DNA from: Achromobacter ruhlandii
GTDB lineage: Bacteria > Pseudomonadota > Gammaproteobacteria > Burkholderiales > Burkholderiaceae_B
Direction of reading: 5' to 3'
Length of the DNA stretch: 64,000 nucleotides
NCBI RefSeq assembly: GCF_902859695.1
Contig: NZ_CADIJL010000016.1
Span: forward strand, 1-64,000
The notes under the pieces are model-generated. The model saw only the letters and a list, made by a program, of their open reading frames with translations, ran no database searches and was not told the origin of the DNA. Shown here in pieces: positions 1,535 through 12,734 of this stretch. A program made the position numbers and the translations under genes. Positions within the stretch are counted from its first letter, which is position 1, and each line of letters starts with the position of its first letter.

Positions 1535-2640
1535 GCGCCTCGCTCCTGCTCGTCACGCCGGCGACGCAGCTCGGCAAAGATCCGATCCTTGAAGGCCGGG
1601 TAGGACTCGCCGCCGCGGGCGAACATGCCCAGTTCACGGCCTTTGCGGTCGATACCACCGTCGGACGCCCACCACCGGTCCGCGTCCTGCGCGGGCTTGT
1701 CGGCAACCTTATCCGGCTTGGCGGGTACGGCCTGTGCGGCTTGGCGCGCTCTGGTCAGCACCTTGGCCAGGTACGGCCAGGGTATCGGCTCCGGGGCCGG
1801 CTTCGACTGTCGCGCAGCCTCGACAGCCGCCAACGCTTCGCCCTCGGTCAGACCTTTCTCGACCCATTCGCGGAAGTCGGGCCGACCTGGAGCGACGTCA
1901 ACGCCCTCAGCGCGAAGTCGCTTGGCCAGGACGCCGCAGGGCGTCGGGTCCGGCAAGTAGCCGGGCGAGTTATCCACAGTCGGAGGCTCGCGCGCGCTAC
2001 CCCCCCCTTCTTTTATATATGTCCCTGTCCCTGTCCCTGTCTTAGCCGTGACACCCCCGTGACTTTCCGTGTGACTTCCATGAGGTGTCACAGTGACAAC
2101 CTTGTGTCCCTCCGTGACGACGATGGATATTCCGCGTGACGCCGCGACCTCGCGCAGATGTGACGTACTGGTTCCCTTAGCCGGCAGAATCAAGCCAACG
2201 TCACGTAGCGCCGCAAAGAGCAGCTTGCGGTCTTGGCGCTCCTCGCGCTTGCGTTCGTTATCGCCATCCTTCGCGGCCTGGTGCTCCTCCCGTTTCGCCA
2301 TAGCCTTGATGGCCTCCTCCGCGATCACCGGGTGATAGAGCCGCCCGTCGGAGCACTTCACGAAGCCGCGCAAGGCCATGTCCTTCACCTTGCGCCAGGC
2401 GGACAACTCCTTGCCGGCCAGGTGGGCCAAAATCCTGTCGTCGTCAGGTAGCGATGCCGCGGGCTCCTGGTTCCAACTCTTGCACCACAGCCGCAAAGCC
2501 GTCTTGAACTCTTCGCCCGAGGAAAGCGCCATCATGTCGCTGTCCAGTAGGCGCTCGGTGTGCAGAGGCATGAACGGCAGGCCGCGCAGGTTGCAGTCTG
2601 GCGGTGTCAGGGGCGCAGGTAGCTGCTCAAAGTCTGTCAT
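1531..2640 (-). CDS. DUF1376-containing phage replication-type protein
   Basis: The 369-residue product opens with LPAPLTPPDCNLRGLPFMPL and continues with a compact helical domain (about residues 5-110) that matches the DUF1376 pattern: a short N-terminal strand, the FKTALRLWCKSWNQEPAASL motif and the LRGFVKCSDGRLYHPVIAEEA wing. Such proteins sit where lambda has gene O and are thought to start phage replication. After it come a charged coiled segment (about 115-140), a low-complexity linker with a TGTGTG stretch and a Gly-rich run, and a C-terminal helical region (about 230-360). It is coupled by ATGA to its neighbour. A run of eight G (minus strand, 2000-2007) in the linker is slip-prone but is in frame here. 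Confidence 0.7.
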   Translation of the reverse strand: MTDFEQLPAPLTPPDCNLRGLPFMPLHTERLLDSDMMALSSGEEFKTALRLWCKSWNQEPAASLPDDDRILAHLAGKELSAWRKVKDMALRGFVKCSDGRLYHPVIAEEAIKAMAKREEHQAAKDGDNERKREERQDRKLLFAALRDVGLILPAKGTSTSHLREVAASRGISIVVTEGHKVVTVTPHGSHTESHGGVTAKTGTGTGTYIKEGGGSAREPPTVDNSPGYLPDPTPCGVLAKRLRAEGVDVAPGRPDFREWVEKGLTEGEALAAVEAARQSKPAPEPIPWPYLAKVLTRARQAAQAVPAKPDKVADKPAQDADRWWASDGGIDRKGRELGMFARGGESYPAFKDRIFAELRRRRDEQERGA

Positions 2641-2762
2641 AGGTCACTCGCACACGTGTCGGGGGACACCGACCGAAAGGGGCCGTAGCCCTGCCGCTCC
2701 AACGCCATGAGCGCGGTGACAGTGCTATCCTTCCCGTCGAAGCGCGATACATCTCGCAACAT
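2637..2762 (-). CDS. Small phage protein or truncated remnant, 41 residues
   Basis: A 41-codon frame (MLRDVSRFDGKDSTVTALMA to CASDL) ends with a TGA that overlaps the ATG of the DUF1376 gene, the coupling used throughout this operon. Its natural composition argues that it is coded. It begins just 20 bases from the start of the divergent nuclease gene, so it may be the C-terminal remnant of a larger gene lost when the nuclease cassette arrived. No function assigned. Confidence 0.4.
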   Translation of the reverse strand: MLRDVSRFDGKDSTVTALMALERQGYGPFRSVSPDTCASDL

Positions 2763-2782
2763 CCCCTAAACCAGACCGCCCT

Positions 2783-3787
2783 ATGTTGACGAAGACTGCG
2801 AAAAAAATTGCCAATTCGACGGACTTGCGTCGCTCGCAACGTCTGACGAGTTCGGATATATCGCCCAACTACTGGTGGGTGAGCCACAATCAAATGCATC
2901 GCCGAGAGCTCAGCGGCGGCTACATCTGGTGTCCCCAAACCAAGAAAGGCGGCGGGGCGAGAGAAACCTGGACCAACGTGTCCCGCGTGCGACGGGGAGA
3001 CATCGTCTTTTCCTACGCAAAAACGAAGCTCCAAGCCGTTGGCGTTGCGCTTGGCGATGCACAGGAGGCAAGTGCCCCCAGCGAGGCGTATCACTCGTGG
3101 AACGATGCTGGATGGCGCGTGCAAATCCAGTGGGAATCCCTTGGATCCCCGTTGTCTCCCAAAGAGCATTGGGACGAAATCGGCGACCTTTTCCCTGCTG
3201 TCCATTCGCCACTGCGCGAGGATGGCGGCGGAAACATGACATACCTGGCGGCGCTGAGCGTGCCTCTGGGTTTGAAGCTGCTGGACCTGATCGGCATGAC
3301 GGACGACGACGCCCTCGCGAACGTTGATCGCGAGATGGTCAAGGTGTCTGGCGTCGATAAGACCGAAGTTGAGCGGGTCTACCAGGCGCGTATAGGCCAA
3401 GGCACGTATAGAAAGAACGTCATGTCCGTCGAACGCTCCTGTCGCGTAACGGGTGTCAGCAATGTGGATCTGCTCATCGCGAGCCACATCAGGCCGTGGC
3501 GTCAAAGCTCGAACCAACAACGTCTCGACGGCAATAATGGCCTGCTTCTCTCGCCTCACGTCGATAAGTTGTTCGACTCGGCCTGGATATCGTTTTCCAA
3601 TCAGGGAGAGATCCTGGTTGCCAGCGGCGAGGTTCGAGAAGTGCTCATCGCCTGGGGCATTGACCCAGACATGAACGTAGGACGATTCAATGAGGACCAA
3701 GAGAAGTACTTGGCCTACCATCGGGACGTCCTTTTCTCGGAAAAGGCTGAGCAACCAGCCCGGTCCCCCAGGCTTGGCAGCACTTGA
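2783..3787 (+). CDS. EVE/PUA-like plus HNH endonuclease, putative restriction nuclease
   Basis: The 334-residue protein has two parts. Residues about 25-165 (YWWVSHNQMHRRELSGGYIW, then a RRGDIVFSYAKTKLQAVGVA stretch) resemble EVE/PUA-type base-reading domains that occur in front of nucleases. Residues about 205-275 (VERSCRVTGV, then LLIASHIRPW and DGNNGLLLSPHVDKLFD) carry the HNH_2 pattern: the SH of the first motif, the central Asn and the final His. This architecture is typical of modification-dependent (type IV, McrA-like) restriction enzymes, so cleavage of modified foreign DNA in the cytoplasm is the likely job. The target base cannot be told from sequence. It lies antisense to the early operon as cargo. 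Confidence 0.65.
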   Translation: MLTKTAKKIANSTDLRRSQRLTSSDISPNYWWVSHNQMHRRELSGGYIWCPQTKKGGGARETWTNVSRVRRGDIVFSYAKTKLQAVGVALGDAQEASAPSEAYHSWNDAGWRVQIQWESLGSPLSPKEHWDEIGDLFPAVHSPLREDGGGNMTYLAALSVPLGLKLLDLIGMTDDDALANVDREMVKVSGVDKTEVERVYQARIGQGTYRKNVMSVERSCRVTGVSNVDLLIASHIRPWRQSSNQQRLDGNNGLLLSPHVDKLFDSAWISFSNQGEILVASGEVREVLIAWGIDPDMNVGRFNEDQEKYLAYHRDVLFSEKAEQPARSPRLGST

Positions 3788-3834
3788 ACCGACGGGCCCA
3801 TCCAGGCCAACGCCCGGTGTTGCGCTACTGTTAT

Positions 3835-3851
3835 GCGTCTCAAAGAGACGC
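3835..3851. promoter_or_regulatory. Perfect inverted repeat upstream of a winged-helix-like gene
   Basis: GCGTCTCAAAGAGACGC is a perfect 7-bp inverted repeat with a 3-base centre, located 90 bases upstream of the winged-helix-like gene at 3941 and 48 bases after the nuclease gene. No T-run follows, so an operator or a transcript hairpin is more likely than a terminator. Confidence 0.35.
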
Positions 3852-3940
3852 AGGCCGTCGACCAACATTCGCACCGTAGAGTAAAGACAATAGCTGCACT
3901 GAGAACAATCCAACCATCTCACGTAGATCCGCCACCAGCG

Positions 3941-4432
3941 ATGAAACTCGACCGCGCCGTACAAAAAGTGATTCTGGATACACTCGCCTCGCGATATCCG
4001 GACTGGATGGGCCTTGACGCGCTGCTCTCCCATCTTGACTTCAACCTCGAGCACCAGCACAGGTTGGCCAACGTCTACTATTTGGAAGGTCACGGGCTTG
4101 TGGAAGCCAAAGGGAATCCCAAGGGAACGGAGGGCCAGGGCCTGCGCATCACCGCAAAAGGCCTCGATTTCCTTGAAGATGATGGCGGAATCAGTGCCAT
4201 CCTTGGCGTGGTGACCATCAAGCTGCATGATGACACCATCAAGCATTTGATAGAGGCCAAGATCCTGGCATCCGATCTCCCTGCGGAGGAAAAAAAGCGA
4301 TGGACCGATCAGCTTCGATCTCTGCCCGCCAAGACCATAGAGCACCTGGTCATGAAACTGGTTGATAGGGGCCTTGATTCGGGGTCCGGAGTGCTCGCTA
4401 CCGTGGGCGCCTACCTCGGGATTTCCCAGTAA
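3941..4432 (+). CDS. Winged-helix-like protein, cargo
   Basis: A 163-residue frame. I chose the ATG at 3941 (MKLDRAVQKVILDTLASRYP) because the longer frame back to 3833 crosses the inverted repeat and has poor composition; no strong ribosome site marks either start. Residues about 5-75 look like a winged helix: an opening helix, a LDALLSHLD helix, a recognition-like helix ending VYYLEGHGLVEAKGN, then a wing with GLRITAKGLDFLEDD. The C-terminal half is helical (HDDTIKHLIEAKILASDL). It follows the nuclease in the same direction after 153 bases and may be its regulator or partner. That link is inferred from position only. Confidence 0.6.
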   Translation: MKLDRAVQKVILDTLASRYPDWMGLDALLSHLDFNLEHQHRLANVYYLEGHGLVEAKGNPKGTEGQGLRITAKGLDFLEDDGGISAILGVVTIKLHDDTIKHLIEAKILASDLPAEEKKRWTDQLRSLPAKTIEHLVMKLVDRGLDSGSGVLATVGAYLGISQ

Positions 4433-4689
4433 AACCCCAATCAACTCTTTCCGAACCGGCCCGATGGTCGGGGCAAACGCAACTTGAACATGCGCAAAAG
4501 AAACAATGGTGCGACTCACAAGCCCGATGCCAGAGTTGCAATTTCCGGCGTCAAGCATGTCCGCCCCATCCCTGGTCGAACACGTCGGGACAAATCCGCA
4601 ACCTAGAATTGCCAACCAATTTGGCGGCCAGTTCCAGCCATATATGATCGGGATTCCCCAACCCCAACCATGTGTGGAAGGAACTGACC

Positions 4690-4959
4690 ATGACGACACA
4701 AACAGGACTCCAACGCAGAATCCTCGACACGCTTGCACGCGTGAGAGTGGGTACACCGAGCGCTCCAGCCGATACCGAGACGGCATGGGAAGAAATACAA
4801 ACGTTCGCAGGTGATGACGAGGTCATTACAGCTCTGCTGGAGCTGGAAGAGAAAGGCCTGATACGCAGCGGCGTAACGCGAGGAGTGGACGGCGAGTGCG
4901 CCATAAGTACGGGCGTGCTGGCCATCACGGATTACGGTCGCCAAAGTCTGGCGCGCTGA
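4690..4959 (+). CDS. Small winged-helix-like protein, cargo
   Basis: An 89-residue frame starting MTTQTGLQRRILDTLARVRV behind a GGAAGGAAC site; an in-frame ATG 18 bases earlier is less well placed. Its plan repeats the fold of the gene at 3941: the opening LQRRILDTLA matches VQKVILDTLA there, followed by a LLELEEKGLIRSGV turn and a short wing ending VLAITDYGRQSLA. It has no C-terminal extension. The last 35 bases overlap the end of a convergent minus-strand gene. Probably DNA-binding or a protein-protein adaptor; the partner is unknown. Confidence 0.6.
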   Translation: MTTQTGLQRRILDTLARVRVGTPSAPADTETAWEEIQTFAGDDEVITALLELEEKGLIRSGVTRGVDGECAISTGVLAITDYGRQSLAR

Positions 4960-5266
4960 ATTTCTTACCCCAGCCGATCACGAGGTAGCCAAATGGTCGG
5001 CTCCACTCCGTCACACCGGCTGGCGGGATCGCGCCAGGAATAATCTCGGCCAACTCATATGTGAATCGCCCTGCGGCATCGCCAACGGGCCGAAAGGTGG
5101 CATAACCAATGTGGTTGCCGGCGCCGTCACGTAGGCGCATGCCCAAGAGTGTCGGAGCTTCAGGGCGCATTTTCGGCCCCTCAAGCACCAGTCGAACGCC
5201 ACCGCGGCCGGCAGGCTCGAGCCAGGTGTTGATATCGAGGTCAGCGTAGGTTTGGAATTCACGCAT
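4925..5266 (-). CDS. Phage hypothetical protein, 113 residues
   Basis: The ATG at 5266 (MREFQTYADLDINTWLEPAG) has an AAGGAG site seven bases upstream and is preferred over an extension to 5326. The sequence alternates short strands (RLVLEG, GYATFRPVG, YLVIGWGKKF), so a small beta-rich soluble protein is likely. It runs in the direction of the leftward early operon, after the Cro-like gene, and its end overlaps the convergent winged-helix gene by 35 bases. Family not recognised. Confidence 0.55.
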   Translation of the reverse strand: MREFQTYADLDINTWLEPAGRGGVRLVLEGPKMRPEAPTLLGMRLRDGAGNHIGYATFRPVGDAAGRFTYELAEIIPGAIPPAGVTEWSRPFGYLVIGWGKKFSAPDFGDRNP

Positions 5267-5355
5267 GGGAGGCTCCTTGCTGCGAATGGGCGCCCTGCCC
5301 CTCCCCCTTAAACTGGCTGCTCTCACACAAACCGTTCTTGGGAAAGGAGCAGGGC

Positions 5356-5616
5356 ATGAAGGACCACAACGGCAACGACATAGACTTCAGCGACAAGGAT
5401 TTCGGTATCACGCTCGATGCTCCTTTATCGGTTGGAATCGATCCGGAATCGGGCGCGCTTCGGCTCTCCGCGCCGCAGCTGCAAATGTTCGGCGCAACAT
5501 TCCACGTTTCGCTCTCGCCGGGCGCCTCTGCTCAACTGGCGTCGACCCTGAAGCAAATCGAGTCCTGGCTGGGAAAGCCAATCGAGGATATTGCGAAGCC
5601 GGATTCCGTCCAGTGA
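5356..5616 (+). CDS. Small hypothetical protein next to the Cro-like gene
   Basis: An 86-residue frame from ATG 5356 (MKDHNGNDIDFSDKDFGITL) with AAAGGAG seven bases upstream. The protein is acidic, with strands up to about residue 55 and a helix (GASAQLASTLKQIESWLG) near the end. It ends two bases from the stop of the convergent Cro-like gene, so both may share a transcription end. It is antisense to the early leftward transcript from the Cro promoter, so its expression may depend on the lysogenic state. Function unknown. Confidence 0.55.
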   Translation: MKDHNGNDIDFSDKDFGITLDAPLSVGIDPESGALRLSAPQLQMFGATFHVSLSPGASAQLASTLKQIESWLGKPIEDIAKPDSVQ

Positions 5617-5618
5617 TG

Positions 5619-5837
5619 TCACGCATGGCTCGGCTCCTGCGGCGCGGCCGTGGCCAGCTCGGCCGGCGGCTCGAAGGCCCCGGGCCGCACAGCCTGCAGG
5701 TACATGCGGCGCGCAGGCGGTATTCCTTCCTTGCGCCAATCGGAGACCGATGGCGGCTTCACTCTGCACAGGCGGGCGACGGCTACGGTGCCACCCAGCG
5801 CGTCGATAATTTGGGAGTCGGGGTGTTTAGTGTTCAC
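5619..5837 (-). CDS. Cro-like DNA-binding protein (YdaS type)
   Basis: A 72-residue protein whose N-terminal half is a helix-turn-helix (IIDALGGTVAVARLCRVKPP then SVSDWRKEGIPPARRMYLQA), the form seen in Cro/YdaS antirepressors of lambdoid phages. It diverges from the CI-like repressor with operators between, as in lambda, so it should shut off repressor synthesis and favour lytic growth. The start is a GTG. The predicted -10 box ends seven bases before it, so the transcript may be leaderless or nearly so; a GGAG overlaps the GTG and is too close to act as a normal ribosome site. The C-terminal 25 residues are Pro/Ala-rich. Confidence 0.75.
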   Translation of the reverse strand: MNTKHPDSQIIDALGGTVAVARLCRVKPPSVSDWRKEGIPPARRMYLQAVRPGAFEPPAELATAAPQEPSHA

Positions 5838-5844
5838 TCCACAA

Positions 5845-5872
5845 TTATTAGGCTTGCCTTAAATATAGTCAA
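5845..5872 (-). promoter_or_regulatory. Predicted lytic promoter of the Cro-like gene
   Basis: On the minus strand TTGACT (5867-5872) is separated by 16 bases from TAATAA (5845-5850), a near-consensus sigma-70 promoter pointing into the Cro-like gene. Operator O1 fills the spacer and O2 abuts the -35 box, so repressor binding would block polymerase. The predicted transcription start is at about 5838, at the start codon. Confidence 0.6.
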
Positions 5873-5906
5873 GACATGCCTAATGAAATTAAAAGGCATG
5901 CCTATT
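5848..5906. promoter_or_regulatory. Three repressor operators between cro-like and cI-like genes
   Basis: Three related sites occur: TTAGGCTTGCCTTAA (5848-5862), AAGACATGCCTAAT (5871-5884) and AAAAGGCATGCCTATT (5891-5906). The shared core is GGCATGCC or a close variant, a palindrome expected for a dimeric helix-turn-helix protein. Two more copies lie beyond the repressor gene (6371-6409), one identical to the first. Spacing of about 20 bases centre to centre suits side-by-side dimers, as at lambda OR. Confidence 0.65.
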
Positions 5907-5929
5907 CATTTTCCACTTAGGATTGCCGA

Positions 5930-6301
5930 ATGAGCACACTCGCACAACGTCTCAGAGAAGCAATGGACCAGACCGGCGTAAAGCAGGTGGACATTGCTCG
6001 CGCAGCGAACATCAAACCGCCCTCGGTGGCCGACTGGCTCAACGGAAAGACCAAGAACATTCGCGGTGCGAATTTGGTTAGCGTTGCACAGCTGCTCAAT
6101 GTGAGTGAGGCTTGGCTGGCAGACGGCAAGCTGCCCAAAGAGCGAATGCTCGATTCAGATTGGCCATTTCCGCGAATCCCCAAAGAGCTGTATTACCAGC
6201 TCACCGTATCGCAGCGCGATGGGATTGAAGAATGGGTACTCAAGCAAGTCGAAGCTTACGTTGGAACGCCGTCCGCAGAATCGAAGGCACAGAGCGCATG
6301 A
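5930..6301 (+). CDS. CI-like phage repressor (XRE family, short form)
   Basis: The 123-residue protein starts MSTLAQRLREAMDQTGVKQV and has a clear XRE helix-turn-helix over residues about 5-65 (IARAANIKPPSVADWLNGKT). The C-terminal 55 residues are helical, with no LexA-type serine-protease domain, so RecA-driven self-cleavage is not expected and induction must work another way. An AGGA site lies eight bases before the ATG. The gene sits between two operator blocks and is followed by a terminator, which fits the lysogenic repressor. It is short compared with lambda CI (237 residues). Confidence 0.75.
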   Translation: MSTLAQRLREAMDQTGVKQVDIARAANIKPPSVADWLNGKTKNIRGANLVSVAQLLNVSEAWLADGKLPKERMLDSDWPFPRIPKELYYQLTVSQRDGIEEWVLKQVEAYVGTPSAESKAQSA

Positions 6302-7869: not shown

Positions 7870-8847
7870 GTGAACGCTATTTCTGAACCTATCGCCCTGG
7901 ATCGCACACGCTTCCTCGGCGGCACCGACATGGCCGCGCTGTACGGCGTCAGCAAGTGGAAGACGCCCCTGCAGGTGTGGGCCGAAAAGACCCATCGTGA
8001 TGCCTACCGCGAAGACGACCCGGCCAAGACGAAGGTGCTCAACCGCGGCAAACGCCTTGAACCAGTCGTGGTAGCGATGCTGCGCGAAGACTACGGCCTG
8101 GACGTTGTCGCCGTGAACGAACGCTACACGCACCCCGAGCACAGCTTCCTGTCGGTCGAAATCGACTTCGAGTGGCGTGTCACCGAGCAGGCCCTAGCAG
8201 CATTCCCCTGGCTCGCGCCGCTCGAACTGGGCTCGATCCAGAACGGCGAGGTCAAGACCGTGCATCCGTTCGTCGCCCACGAGTGGGGCGACATGGGCAC
8301 CGATGACGTGCCGATTCACTATGCGGCGCAGTCCATGACCGGGTTGGCTGTCACCGGCCGCGAGGTGTGCCTTTACGCCACGCTGGTAGGCGTGGACGAC
8401 CTGACCTTCTACGCGGTGCGTCGCGATCAGGAGACGATCGACGCGATGGTCGCCAAGGCCGTGGACTTCTGGACCAACCACGTCCTGACCGACATCCCGC
8501 CCGATCCCGAAACGTTCGACGACCTGAAGTTTCTCTACGCCCGCGACAACGGCCAAGCGATCGAGGCAACCGACGAGATCCTGGTCCAGCTTGCCGAGTT
8601 TCGCGAGCTCAGCGACCAGGCCAAGCGCATCGAGGAACGCCGCGACGAGCTCAAGTTCGGCATCCAGACGTTCATGGAGCCCAACGCCATTCTGACGGCC
8701 AAGGGCGAGCCGGTCGCCACCTGGAAAAGCCAGTCCGCCAGCCGCCTGGACGGCAAGGCCCTGGCGCTGGCTCGCCCCGATATCGCCGCCGCCTACCGCA
8801 CCACTTCCGAAACCCGAGTCTTCCGCCTGAAAGGAGCGAAGAAATGA
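7870..8847 (+). CDS. YqaJ-family phage exonuclease
   Basis: A 325-residue protein with a GTG start behind AAGGA. The N-terminal RTRFLGGTDMAALYGVSKWK matches the GGSD-type opening of YqaJ/lambda-exonuclease nucleases. A NRGKRLEPVVVAMLREDYGL helix and the VEIDFEW then NGEVKTVHP segments supply the Asp and Glu-x-Lys metal-binding residues of the PD-(D/E)xK core. The C-terminal third is helical. Directly followed by recT with an ATGA overlap, it should resect double-stranded ends so that RecT can anneal them: the phage recombination pair. Confidence 0.8.
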   Translation: MNAISEPIALDRTRFLGGTDMAALYGVSKWKTPLQVWAEKTHRDAYREDDPAKTKVLNRGKRLEPVVVAMLREDYGLDVVAVNERYTHPEHSFLSVEIDFEWRVTEQALAAFPWLAPLELGSIQNGEVKTVHPFVAHEWGDMGTDDVPIHYAAQSMTGLAVTGREVCLYATLVGVDDLTFYAVRRDQETIDAMVAKAVDFWTNHVLTDIPPDPETFDDLKFLYARDNGQAIEATDEILVQLAEFRELSDQAKRIEERRDELKFGIQTFMEPNAILTAKGEPVATWKSQSASRLDGKALALARPDIAAAYRTTSETRVFRLKGAKK

Positions 8848-10361: not shown

Positions 10362-11153
10362 ATGGCCAAGAAATCCAAAGACGTGTACGGCGCGGACGGC
10401 CAGAGCAATCTGCTCAATTTCGACCCCGCCAAGCTGACTCTCGTCACCGACGAATCCAGCCCACTCTATGACAAGCGCGTGCATCTGCCCGTGAACGAGG
10501 CGCTGGCGCGAAACATCGACTATCAGGGCGTGCTGGAGCCCGTGGCGGTTTCCAAGAACCCCGAGACGGGCGACACCGAGGTCGTGTTCGGCCGGCAGCG
10601 CGTGAAGGCCGCCGTGCTCGCCAACCAGTGGCGCCGAGAACGCGGTGTGCCGGAGCGACTGATTCCCGGCATCGTCTACACGGGCAAGCGCGAGAACGCC
10701 CTGGACGCGATCGTCAGCGAGAACGAAGCCCGCACCGCTGATACGCCGCTGGGGCGCGCCGAGAAGATGCGCCAGCACCTTGCCCTGGGCAAGGGAGAAG
10801 ATCAGATTGCGGTCATTTACAACTGCACGGTCGCCACGGTCCGCGACACCCTGGCGCTGCTGGATAGCCCCAAGGCCGTGCAGAACGCCGTCGAAGCGGG
10901 TCAGATCACCCTGACCCATGCCAAGGCACTGGTGAAGCTCAAACCCGATGAACAGCGCGCCAAGGTGGCCGATCTGGTGCGGGCCGGCCAGGGCGCCAAG
11001 CCTCACGAGCGCAGCCGCAAGCAGGCCGCTGTGATGGGTGAACGCCCTCGCGTGAAATCCCGCAAGCAGATCCTGGCAGCGCTGGAACAGGCCCAAGGCG
11101 ACTATGCCGCCGCCCTGCGTTGGGTTTTGGGCGAAGTAGAAGATGTCGCCTGA
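10362..11153 (+). CDS. ParB-like nuclease-domain protein, copy 1
   Basis: A 263-residue protein with the ParB/Srx N-terminal domain (about residues 40-130: NIDYQGVLEPVAVSKNPETG, then VVFGRQRVKAAVLANQWRRE) and a helix-turn-helix (about 140-165, GKGEDQIAVIYNCTVATVRD). The C-terminus carries a VMGERPRVKSRKQILAALEQ helix. Chromosome-partition ParB proteins clamp DNA in a CTP-dependent way; in phage early operons such proteins more likely act as regulators or nucleases. A second, frameshifted copy lies at 21381-22174. Here the gene is intact. Confidence 0.75.
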   Translation: MAKKSKDVYGADGQSNLLNFDPAKLTLVTDESSPLYDKRVHLPVNEALARNIDYQGVLEPVAVSKNPETGDTEVVFGRQRVKAAVLANQWRRERGVPERLIPGIVYTGKRENALDAIVSENEARTADTPLGRAEKMRQHLALGKGEDQIAVIYNCTVATVRDTLALLDSPKAVQNAVEAGQITLTHAKALVKLKPDEQRAKVADLVRAGQGAKPHERSRKQAAVMGERPRVKSRKQILAALEQAQGDYAAALRWVLGEVEDVA

Positions 11154-11608: not shown

Positions 11609-11839
11609 ATGCTTACCCTATCAGCCAAAGAGCTCGTTGCGGTTACCGGTAAGTCCAGAAAGTCCGCACAAATTGTCGTCTTGAGGAATTTAAATGTTCC
11701 CTTCAAAATCAGGCCTGACGGTACCCCTGTCGTATTGCGGGCAGCGTTGGAGGCCGCGTTAGGCCATGCGCCCAAGAACCAAGGACCGACACCTCCCCGC
11801 GTGCGTGTACCAGAAGCACGGCGCGTACTGGTACGTTAA
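11609..11839 (+). CDS. DUF4224-type protein next to the integrase
   Basis: A 76-residue protein, MLTLSAKELVAVTGKSRKSA onward, matching the short DUF4224 family that habitually sits directly before phage integrases. A helix-turn-helix-like N-terminus (about residues 4-45) suggests a DNA-binding directionality factor or integrase regulator. Its last 74 bases overlap the integrase start in another frame, which is common for this pair. Confidence 0.65.
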   Translation: MLTLSAKELVAVTGKSRKSAQIVVLRNLNVPFKIRPDGTPVVLRAALEAALGHAPKNQGPTPPRVRVPEARRVLVR

Positions 11840-12734
11840 GGGCGGAAAGTGGCGCAAGATCGGCGCCGATCTACACAGCGCGTTGACCGAATATGCTCGT
11901 ATCGTCTCCGCCCCAAAGGACGGCATGCCGGCATTGATCGATGACGCCCTTCCGATACTGACAAAAGACGTCGCCGCCTCGACTCGCAAGCAATACGAAT
12001 ACTGCGCAGCTCAGCTCAAAGAGGCTTTCGTCGACTTCTATCCGAACCAAGTGCGCCACGGCGACGTTGTGGAGCTGCTGGACGGCTACGCCGATCGAAG
12101 AGCCCTGGCCAATCGAATGCTGACCGTACTGAAGCTGGTCTTCCAGTGGGCCTTGGACCGCGGCCGGGTAGAAGCCAATCCATGCGTCAGCGTGAAGCGC
12201 TTCGTTCAGAAGCCGCGAGACCGGCTAATCACGCCCAAGGAATACGCAGCCATCTACGAGGGCTGCCCACCTTGGCTCCAATGCGTCATGGATCTTTGCT
12301 ACTTGACCGGCCAGCGCATCGGCGACGTGCTGAAGATCGAGGATGGCCACCTTCGTGACGAGGGGCTGTACTTCGAACAGCAGAAGACGGGAAAGCGCCT
12401 GGTGGTCGCATGGACACCGGAATTGCGCGCAGCGGTGCATCGCGCCCAGGAGCTCCGCGTCGCCCCCACCAGAACGCCGTACGTCCTCGGCGGCCGCGGT
12501 GGCAATCTCCGACTCCATTCCAATGTCTGGCGCATCTTCAAGGACGCCGCGGTCAAAGCCAACGTCCCCGACGTAACCCTGCACGATTTGCGGGCAATGG
12601 CGGGCACAGATGCTGAATCCCAAGGTATAGACCCGAGCGCCCTGCTCGGCCACTCGGATCCCCGAACGACCCGGATCTACCTGCGGGACAAGCGCCCCAA
12701 ACTCGTGAAAGGTCCAACCAGAAAGGCTGTATAG
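11766..12734 (+). CDS. Phage tyrosine integrase
   Basis: A 322-residue site-specific recombinase. The N-terminal part has an arm-binding type segment (residues about 1-40) and a SAM-like core-binding helix bundle (about 60-150). The catalytic domain shows the Arg in LTGQRIGDVLKI, the HDLRAMAG motif (HxxR), GHSDPRTTRIYL with the second His, and the nucleophile Tyr. It is full length and apparently functional. As the last gene of the early operon it marks the right end of this prophage; the attachment site should lie just beyond 12,735. Confidence 0.9.
   Translation: MRPRTKDRHLPACVYQKHGAYWYVKGGKWRKIGADLHSALTEYARIVSAPKDGMPALIDDALPILTKDVAASTRKQYEYCAAQLKEAFVDFYPNQVRHGDVVELLDGYADRRALANRMLTVLKLVFQWALDRGRVEANPCVSVKRFVQKPRDRLITPKEYAAIYEGCPPWLQCVMDLCYLTGQRIGDVLKIEDGHLRDEGLYFEQQKTGKRLVVAWTPELRAAVHRAQELRVAPTRTPYVLGGRGGNLRLHSNVWRIFKDAAVKANVPDVTLHDLRAMAGTDAESQGIDPSALLGHSDPRTTRIYLRDKRPKLVKGPTRKAV

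What the first reader, a model, noticed from the sequence alone, without database searches (positions are those of the whole stretch)
2783..3787. Putative EVE/PUA-like plus HNH restriction nuclease as phage cargo
A base-reading type N-terminal domain coupled to an HNH_2 nuclease, sitting antisense inside a prophage early operon, fits a modification-dependent restriction enzyme used against competing phages. The conserved SH, Asn and His positions of the HNH are all present, so it should be active.
Basis: partly seen in the sequence, partly recalled or inferred. Interest (0 to 1): 0.6.

Follow-up and report, generated by a model that had tools for sequence, protein, structure and literature searches.

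The report
Prophage nuclease that cuts modified DNA
A dormant virus in a bacterial chromosome carries a gene for an enzyme that very probably recognises chemically modified cytosine in DNA and cuts that DNA, an anti-virus weapon of a known type that has here lost an extra front domain still present in sister viruses.

Summary
Window ORF 2783-3787 (+, 334 aa) is a full-length homologue of the EVE-HNH restriction endonuclease VcaM4I (PDB 6yex; phmmer E 6e-67 over residues 29-319). Its predicted structure matches 6yex first, then EVE and YTH domains. The modified-base pocket (P51, W106, Y154, E42) and catalytic set (H235, N252, D261, D265) are invariant in 20 aligned sequences. It lies antisense in a prophage's early region, in a cargo site whose content varies between sister phages.

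New here: in three sister phages 131 residues precede the EVE domain. The window allele and two others share one deletion of about 1.1 kb that removed that domain and its start and fused EVE in frame to the first codons of an upstream ORF. The short alleles show few amino-acid changes in their domains, though recombination may contribute. The lost domain has no sequence relatives; its predicted fold weakly resembles the DNA-binding domain of T4 MotA. Activity and phage defence are untested.

The parts
2783..3787 (+). EVE-HNH endonuclease ORF (334 aa), deletion-fusion allele
   Evidence: ORF; VcaM4I match; HNH_2; fold
2783..2848 (+). Leader of about 22 codons derived from an upstream ORF (intact copy L006:4789-5451), fused by the deletion; AlphaFold2 confidence under 50 for residues 1-26
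2867..3298 (+). EVE domain (aa 29-172), modified-base reader; P51, W106, Y154, E42, W49 invariant in A1
   Evidence: VcaM4I residue roles from PMC7897488
3299..3379 (+). Linker (aa 173-199), helices 174-188 and 193-203 predicted at low confidence; in VcaM4I the linker helix is auto-inhibitory
   Evidence: PMC7897488
3380..3739 (+). HNH nuclease domain (aa 200-319): H235, N252, D261, D265 = VcaM4I H224, N241, D250, D254
   Evidence: PMC7897488
3740..3784 (+). C-terminal tail (aa 320-334), variable between alleles
3941..4432 (+). Downstream cargo ORF, phrog_3983, unknown function (ORF opens at 3833; start 3941 corresponds to the 163-aa form in L006)
4672..4959 (+). Small ORF, weak match to phrog_3983 (E 0.009); also present at the border of the cargo site in L006, L121 and L126
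1531..2640 (-). Phage replication protein (DUF1376; phrog_22470), border of the cargo site; a different gene stands there in L007, L121, L125 and L126
4925..5326 (-). 133-aa early ORF, other border of the cargo site; used as anchor to find sister phages

Best explanation
[quoted passage not shown] The EVE domain flips a modified cytosine (5mC or 5hmC) out of incoming DNA into a pocket made by P51, W106 and Y154. This releases the HNH domain, normally held off by the linker, to cut DNA nearby, so a lysogen restricts phages or plasmids with modified cytosine while unmodified host DNA is spared. Shown here: homology along the whole enzyme, fold, conserved pocket and catalytic residues, prophage cargo position, no methyltransferase among the neighbouring ORFs scanned, few amino-acid changes. 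Inferred from VcaM4I: base specificity, flipping, auto-inhibition, phage restriction. This allele is a shortened form in which a deletion removed an N-terminal domain and fused the EVE domain to a neighbouring ORF's first codons.
For: VcaM4I match E 6.2e-67 over residues 29-319; 40% identity, pocket and catalytic residues invariant among 20 sequences and again among 26; model to 6yex Foldseek E 4.8e-32, VIA Z 22.4 over 274 residues (rmsd 13 A over both domains together, so their mutual orientation differs), EVE proteins 2p5d Z 14.4 and 2eve Z 11.9. VcaM4I restricts T4gt, and H224A, D250A and D254A impair it drastically though not wholly (PMC7897488). Cargo site variable: 3 of 9 sister records have no match to the enzyme and carry other plus-strand ORFs there. 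Between window, L003 and L004, aa 29-319 has 9 synonymous and 2 non-synonymous polymorphic sites, the 2 in one codon; dN/dS 0.07, 0 and 0.20.
Against: No activity or phage test. The start and ribosome-binding site of this allele are unclear, so expression is not assured. Positions around the base differ from VcaM4I: T11 is M38, S23 is C50, Q128 is M152, F132 is A156; S23L abolished restriction in VcaM4I, though Cys is small and occurs in L013, L014 and L023. The genome holds one C5-methyltransferase-like frame, which a 5mC-cutting enzyme might not tolerate. Some polymorphisms within the short trio are shared with long alleles, so recombination may have brought them in, which weakens the selection argument for the short form itself. 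In the collection of 50,697 deposited phage records only 2 matched, over the HNH part alone, so the enzyme is not established in isolated phages.
Confidence: 0.82

Rival explanations
1. The window allele is a decaying remnant: the deletion removed the native start, ribosome-binding site and N-terminal domain, and the remaining ORF is not expressed or not functional.
For: The long form has AGGAG before a TTG start in both L006 and L008, absent before ATG 2783; of 6 base differences in the first 66 bases between window and L006, 5 change the amino acid; the promoter scan of 2600-5400 found 1 site against 1.3 expected, and not upstream of the ORF.
Against: Frame open across the junction in 3 of 3 records; few amino-acid changes in the domains; active-site and pocket residues intact; remaining architecture equals that of VcaM4I.
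Confidence: 0.1
2. It is an HNH nuclease for the phage's own life cycle (DNA processing, packaging or homing) and not defence.
For: HNH enzymes of those kinds are common in phages (recalled).
Against: The match to a restriction enzyme extends over the base-reading domain as well; 3 of 9 sister records lack a match, and the gene sits in a variable antisense site.
Confidence: 0.05
3. The enzyme is of this kind but reads another modification (for example 4mC, glucosyl-hmC or a modified purine), because the pocket differs from VcaM4I at several positions. This overlaps with the best explanation in mechanism, so the odds need not sum to one.
For: T11 to M38, S23 to C50, Q128 to M152, F132 to A156; Met at the T11 place was seen only in the window's own subfamily with L008; the EVE domain is fold-related to YTH m6A readers.
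Against: The three pocket walls and the E15/W22 contacts to the cytosine edge are kept; the Cys (L013, L014, L023) and the Met at the Q128 place (L013) occur in other EVE-HNH relatives.
Confidence: 0.15

Closest known systems
VcaM4I (EVE-HNH, Vibrio campbellii; PDB 6yex; PMC7897488)
   Same: Whole two-domain architecture, 40% identity, pocket P24/W82/Y130, catalytic H224/N241/D250/D254
   Different: T11M, S23C, Q128M, F132A; extra leader; carried in a prophage; derived from a longer protein with a further N-terminal domain
TspA15I and CmeDI (EVE-HNH, named in PMC7897488 section 4)
   Same: Same architecture class; TspA15I prefers 5hmC and protected E. coli against T4gt
   Different: Not compared by sequence here
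TagI (SRA-HNH) and EcoKMcrA (NEco-HNH; E. coli McrA lies on the prophage-like element e14 per PMC12707154, passages)
   Same: Work alike: modified-cytosine reader plus HNH nuclease
   Different: Different reader domain; not the same family
HHPV4I/HhiV4I (PUA-wH-HNH of an archaeal virus; PMC10101028 search listing only, PMC11037411 passages)
   Same: Virus-borne modification-dependent HNH nuclease
   Different: Acts on 6mA DNA; winged helix in addition; archaeal host
MmcQ/YjbR-EVE fusions (PMC7641849, passages)
   Same: A double-wing DNA-binding domain fused to EVE, once with a GIY-YIG nuclease; possibly comparable to the lost N-terminal domain
   Different: No sequence similarity found between that domain and YjbR

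Membership tests
EVE-HNH modification-dependent endonucleases (VcaM4I type) | N-terminal EVE (PUA superfamily) domain | tested here: met
   phmmer to 6yex over residues 29-319; Foldseek and VIA matches to EVE proteins; no Pfam EVE hit
EVE-HNH modification-dependent endonucleases (VcaM4I type) | Hydrophobic pocket for the flipped base (P24, W82, Y130) and edge contact E15 | tested here: met
   P51, W106, Y154, E42 invariant in A1, 20 of 20 rows
EVE-HNH modification-dependent endonucleases (VcaM4I type) | Catalytic H224, D250, D254 and structural N241 | tested here: met
   H235, D261, D265, N252 invariant in A1, 20 of 20 rows
EVE-HNH modification-dependent endonucleases (VcaM4I type) | Auto-inhibitory linker helix between the domains | tested here: inconclusive
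   Helices 174-188 and 193-203 predicted, block pLDDT 51-63 for residues 171-200; inhibition not testable here
EVE-HNH modification-dependent endonucleases (VcaM4I type) | No cognate methyltransferase beside the gene | tested here: met
   None among the 10 ORFs of the region scanned with Pfam and PHROGs; the only PF00145 frame found in the genome is on another contig
EVE-HNH modification-dependent endonucleases (VcaM4I type) | Cleavage of 5mC/5hmC DNA and restriction of modified phage | not testable with these tools
   Needs protein or strains
MmcQ/YjbR or MotA-type double-wing domain (the N-terminal domain of L005-L007) | Sequence match to the YjbR family | tested here: inconclusive
   No Pfam hit in 5 of 5 rows; hhalign p 0.89, with only about 1.3 effective sequences
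MmcQ/YjbR or MotA-type double-wing domain (the N-terminal domain of L005-L007) | Double-wing fold | tested here: inconclusive
   Top three VIA rows are T4 MotA C-terminal domain, Z 6.5, 6.1, 5.6 (92, 92, 91 residues, 3.5-3.6 A), next unrelated 5.3; Foldseek none at E 0.001 or better

The most novel reading that the evidence does not exclude
In sister phages the enzyme has two DNA readers in series: a MotA-like double-wing domain that grips DNA carrying bulky (hydroxymethyl- or glucosyl-) cytosine, followed by the base-flipping EVE domain, then the HNH cutter. The two forms, 96-98% identical in the shared part, would be a ready-made pair showing how an added reader changes the target range of a phage-borne restriction enzyme. 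More widely, EVE nucleases on viral contigs would swap N-terminal readers as cassettes: seven recurring extensions with no detectable similarity to each other, the window subfamily's among them, were seen in front of EVE.
Probability: 0.2. Interest if true: 0.65.

Novelty: new member of a known kind. Interest (0 to 1): 0.42.

Why it matters
It adds a prophage-borne member to the small group of EVE-HNH enzymes studied in the laboratory, and such genes are frequent on IMG/VR contigs (98 confirmed stretches, best 80 kept as 75 distinct loci), although deposited phage records show only partial matches (2 of 50,697). Natural short and long alleles, 96-98% identical in the shared part, make a direct test possible of what extra N-terminal domains in front of EVE do. 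That is open for the whole group: 41 of 75 loci have at least 40 residues before EVE if the first start codon is taken, and 35 of these 41 fall into 8 groups of similar extensions, one of which (2 loci) is probably read-through.

Tried and rejected
EVE in Pfam: no hit to the window protein, solved through VcaM4I and fold search. Genome-collection scans with the protein and with the N-terminal domain found no relative. N-terminal domain searches: no Pfam, PADLOC, PHROG, plasmid or phage match; 2 of 399 genomes of the order gave E 5.8e-5 and 1.4e-3 hits that on reading are a nitrogenase-like oxidoreductase matching over 57 residues (that name is recalled), rejected as chance. Profile comparison with YjbR (28 rows; of 31 fetched loci L127, L157 and L158 left out) and DUF5655 (8 rows; of 11 fetched loci L129, L130 and L168 left out) gave p 0.89 and 0.14: no support, low power. 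A comparison with the single YjbR-like sequence L127 aligned only 14 residues around a Trp, probability 0.5%. VIA rows other than MotA were mostly PLP-enzyme domains, Z up to 5.3, treated as background; YjbR itself was not among the rows, which excludes nothing.

Terminase search in the own genome with PF03354 found none; the contig begins at window position 1, and the rest of the prophage was not looked for further. A second HNH gene in the genome (C56) has a different N-terminal part and was not followed. Host genus: a genome of 6.9 Mb whose L006 cargo neighbour has its only phage relative in Achromobacter phage CF418P1 suggests Achromobacter; not shown, and that match runs antisense to an annotated CDS. 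Its C5 methylase and the host's C5-methyltransferase-like frame are only distantly alike.

Print status: seven searches of the held library gave no listed title or abstract start that describes an EVE-HNH enzyme on a phage or an EVE-HNH with this N-terminal domain; I read listings, passages and a few sections only, and Lutz et al. 2019, the screen cited for the first EVE-HNH enzymes, is not held.

Full report
Observation. The ORF at 2783-3787 (+, 334 aa) is real and looks coding: GC by codon position is 0.60/0.44/0.69 in frame, and its GC of 57.5% is below the window's 64.2%. HNH_2 matches residues 220-271 at 44 bits, over the curated cut-off of 21. PADLOC HNH and restriction-enzyme models match the same half (best E 1.6e-23). 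The N-terminal half matches no Pfam model, but phmmer against solved structures finds VcaM4I (6yex) over residues 29-319 at E 6.2e-67. The AlphaFold2 model (mean pLDDT 77.6, pTM 0.54, residues 1-26 below 50) finds 6yex first by Foldseek (E 4.8e-32) and by VIA-align (Z 22.4, 274 residues), then EVE proteins (2p5d Z 14.4; 2eve Z 11.9) and YTH domains. The 13 A rmsd to 6yex over both domains means that their relative orientation in the model should not be trusted.

Residues. In the alignment of 20 sequences (A1) the residues that form the flipped-base pocket in VcaM4I, P24, W82 and Y130 (PMC7897488, abstract), correspond to P51, W106 and Y154 and are invariant; so are E42 (E15) and W49 (W22). The catalytic set H224, N241, D250, D254 corresponds to H235, N252, D261, D265, all invariant. 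The third HNH moniker is thus Asp, as in VcaM4I. Differences from VcaM4I: T11 is M38, S23 is C50, Q128 is M152 by the ungapped alignment (MAFFT shifts it by a gap), F132 is A156. In VcaM4I, T11F was not significantly reduced while S23L lost restriction. Cys at the S23 place is also found in L013, L014 and L023, Met at the Q128 place in L013; Met at the T11 place only in the window's subfamily and L008.

Setting. Minus-strand replication gene 1531-2640 (phrog_22470), 133-aa ORF 4925-5326 and Cro-like gene 5619-5837, plus-strand repressor-like gene 5930-6301, RecE-like 7870-8847, RecT-like, ParB-like 10362-11153 and integrase 11766-12734 make this the early arm of a prophage; the contig begins at window base 1. 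The EVE-HNH gene is on + among minus-strand early genes. A search with the 133-aa border gene found 7 loci of sister phages: 4 lie in records already found (those of L003, L004, L006, L007) and 3 are new (L121, L125, L126). These 3 of the 9 records searched have no match to the enzyme and instead have ORFs at that place that look by eye like two-helix membrane proteins; L006 and L008 have such an ORF in front of the enzyme gene. So the place is a cargo site. That the cargo is defensive is inference.

The deletion. In L005, L006 and L007 (96-98% identical to the window protein in the shared part) 131 residues precede the EVE domain, starting at a TTG; in L006 AGGAG stands before it. L008 (71% in the shared part) has the same kind of start and the same domain, but split by a frame change into residues 1-65 and 67-430 of the query; a sequencing error is not excluded. 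Because the more distant L008 has the domain, its absence from the window is best read as loss. The window, L003 and L004 agree base for base around the junction: up to about base 2848 they follow the start of the L006 ORF 4789-5451, then they continue at the EVE domain; about 1146 bases of L006 are missing. The frame is open across the junction in all three. Between these three alleles residues 29-319 have 9 synonymous and 2 non-synonymous polymorphic sites, the 2 in one codon (binomial P 1.3e-4 against an expectation of 75% non-synonymous); over the whole ORF it is 11 and 8 (P 0.002), the excess lying in the C-terminal tail. Pairwise dN/dS is 0.07, 0 and 0.20 within the trio. Some of these polymorphisms are shared with the long alleles, so recombination may have imported them; the inference that the short form itself is under selection is therefore moderate. 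By eye the leader has no ribosome-binding sequence, and 5 of its 6 base differences from L006 change the amino acid, so the start codon is uncertain.

The N-terminal domain. It has no relatives in Pfam, PADLOC or PHROGs, nor in the plasmid and phage collections, and only chance-like hits in 2 of 399 genomes of the order. In 268 genomes of the family none of the listed matches to the 437-aa protein, other than the short window gene itself, begins before residue 111. Its dN/dS between L006 and L005 or L007, which are identical to each other there, is 0.28. An AlphaFold2 model from 5 rows has mean pLDDT 76.7 and pTM 0.72. Foldseek finds nothing at E 0.001 or better in the PDB or among viral models. 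VIA-align puts three entries of the phage T4 MotA C-terminal domain on top (Z 6.5, 6.1, 5.6), with unrelated proteins from 5.3 down; by the tool's own note Z under 8 can mean only a common arrangement. MotA reads T4 DNA by straddling a major groove filled with glucosylated hydroxymethyl groups (PMC6755090, passages), and the double-wing domain MmcQ/YjbR is known fused to EVE, once with a GIY-YIG nuclease (PMC7641849, passages). This is an attractive lead, but sequence profiles do not support it.

Relatives. A profile scan of viral contigs (IMG/VR) confirmed 98 stretches, of which the best 80, or 75 distinct loci, were kept. Many matches lie near a contig end, so some may be host DNA flanking a provirus. 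In deposited phage records the protein matched 2 of 50,697, over the HNH part only; in plasmids 85 of 72,556, 16 of them over at least 80% of the query. Of the 75 loci, 49 align over both domains, 21 over EVE only (including split alignments), 3 over HNH only, and 2 fall outside these bins. By first start codon 41 of 75 have at least 40 residues before EVE; 35 of the 41 fall in 8 groups of similar extensions (14, 4, 3, 3, 3, 3, 3, 2; some members near-identical) and 6 stand alone; several of these 6 and the group of 2 look like read-through of non-coding sequence. The largest group carries DUF7662 (one member tested). Two genomes of the family have a domain before EVE that by eye resembles another EVE (L023, L026, not tested further). 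In the genus, 43 genomes were searched with the 437-aa protein: 8 matched, namely the window's own genome, two with an EVE-HNH at 42-44% identity whose match begins at residue 125 or later, and five over the HNH part only.

Mechanism and target. By homology the enzyme should cut DNA with 5mC or 5hmC. Possible natural targets exist: Achromobacter phage CF418P1 encodes an annotated C5 cytosine methylase (phrog_116). The host genome itself has one C5-methyltransferase-like frame that matches phage methyltransferase families; whether it is active, and so whether the enzyme must avoid 5mC, is unknown.

Verdict. A confirmed, well-read finding: a prophage-borne member of the known EVE-HNH family. The unexpected part is the natural domain-loss allele beside intact sister alleles.

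Noticed in passing
L006:5626-6018, L005 and L007 same coordinates, L008 about 5621-6021: N-terminal domain of about 131 aa in front of EVE-HNH without sequence relatives; best structural resemblance is T4 MotA C-terminal domain at Z 6.5.
   Followed up: partly
L051, L059, L064, L068, L069, L072, L073, L077, L090, L097, L112, L114-L116: 14 EVE-containing proteins on viral contigs share one N-terminal extension (DUF7662 in L073); other groups carry unrelated extensions.
   Followed up: partly
L023 (G059) and L026 (G057): Frames of about 500 aa in which a domain that by eye resembles a second EVE precedes EVE-HNH; G059 has two such frames.
   Followed up: no
L121, L125, L126 (cargo site) and L006:4789-5451, L008:4670-5416: ORFs that look by eye like two-helix membrane proteins recur in the same phage cargo site; function unknown, possibly exclusion proteins.
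   Followed up: no
G000:C56:7264-7662 (L002): Second HNH gene in the same genome, 37% identical in the HNH part, with a different N-terminal region; a match of the same length and identity in G040.
   Followed up: no
L169 (Achromobacter phage CF418P1, OQ817832.1 36677-45252): The only phage relative of the L006 membrane-like ORF lies antisense to an annotated hypothetical CDS next to a C5 methylase gene; the annotated strand, or my reading of the ORF, may be wrong.
   Followed up: no
window 3941-4432 and 4672-4959: Two adjacent ORFs that both match phrog_3983 (E 2e-43 and 0.009), perhaps an old duplication.
   Followed up: no
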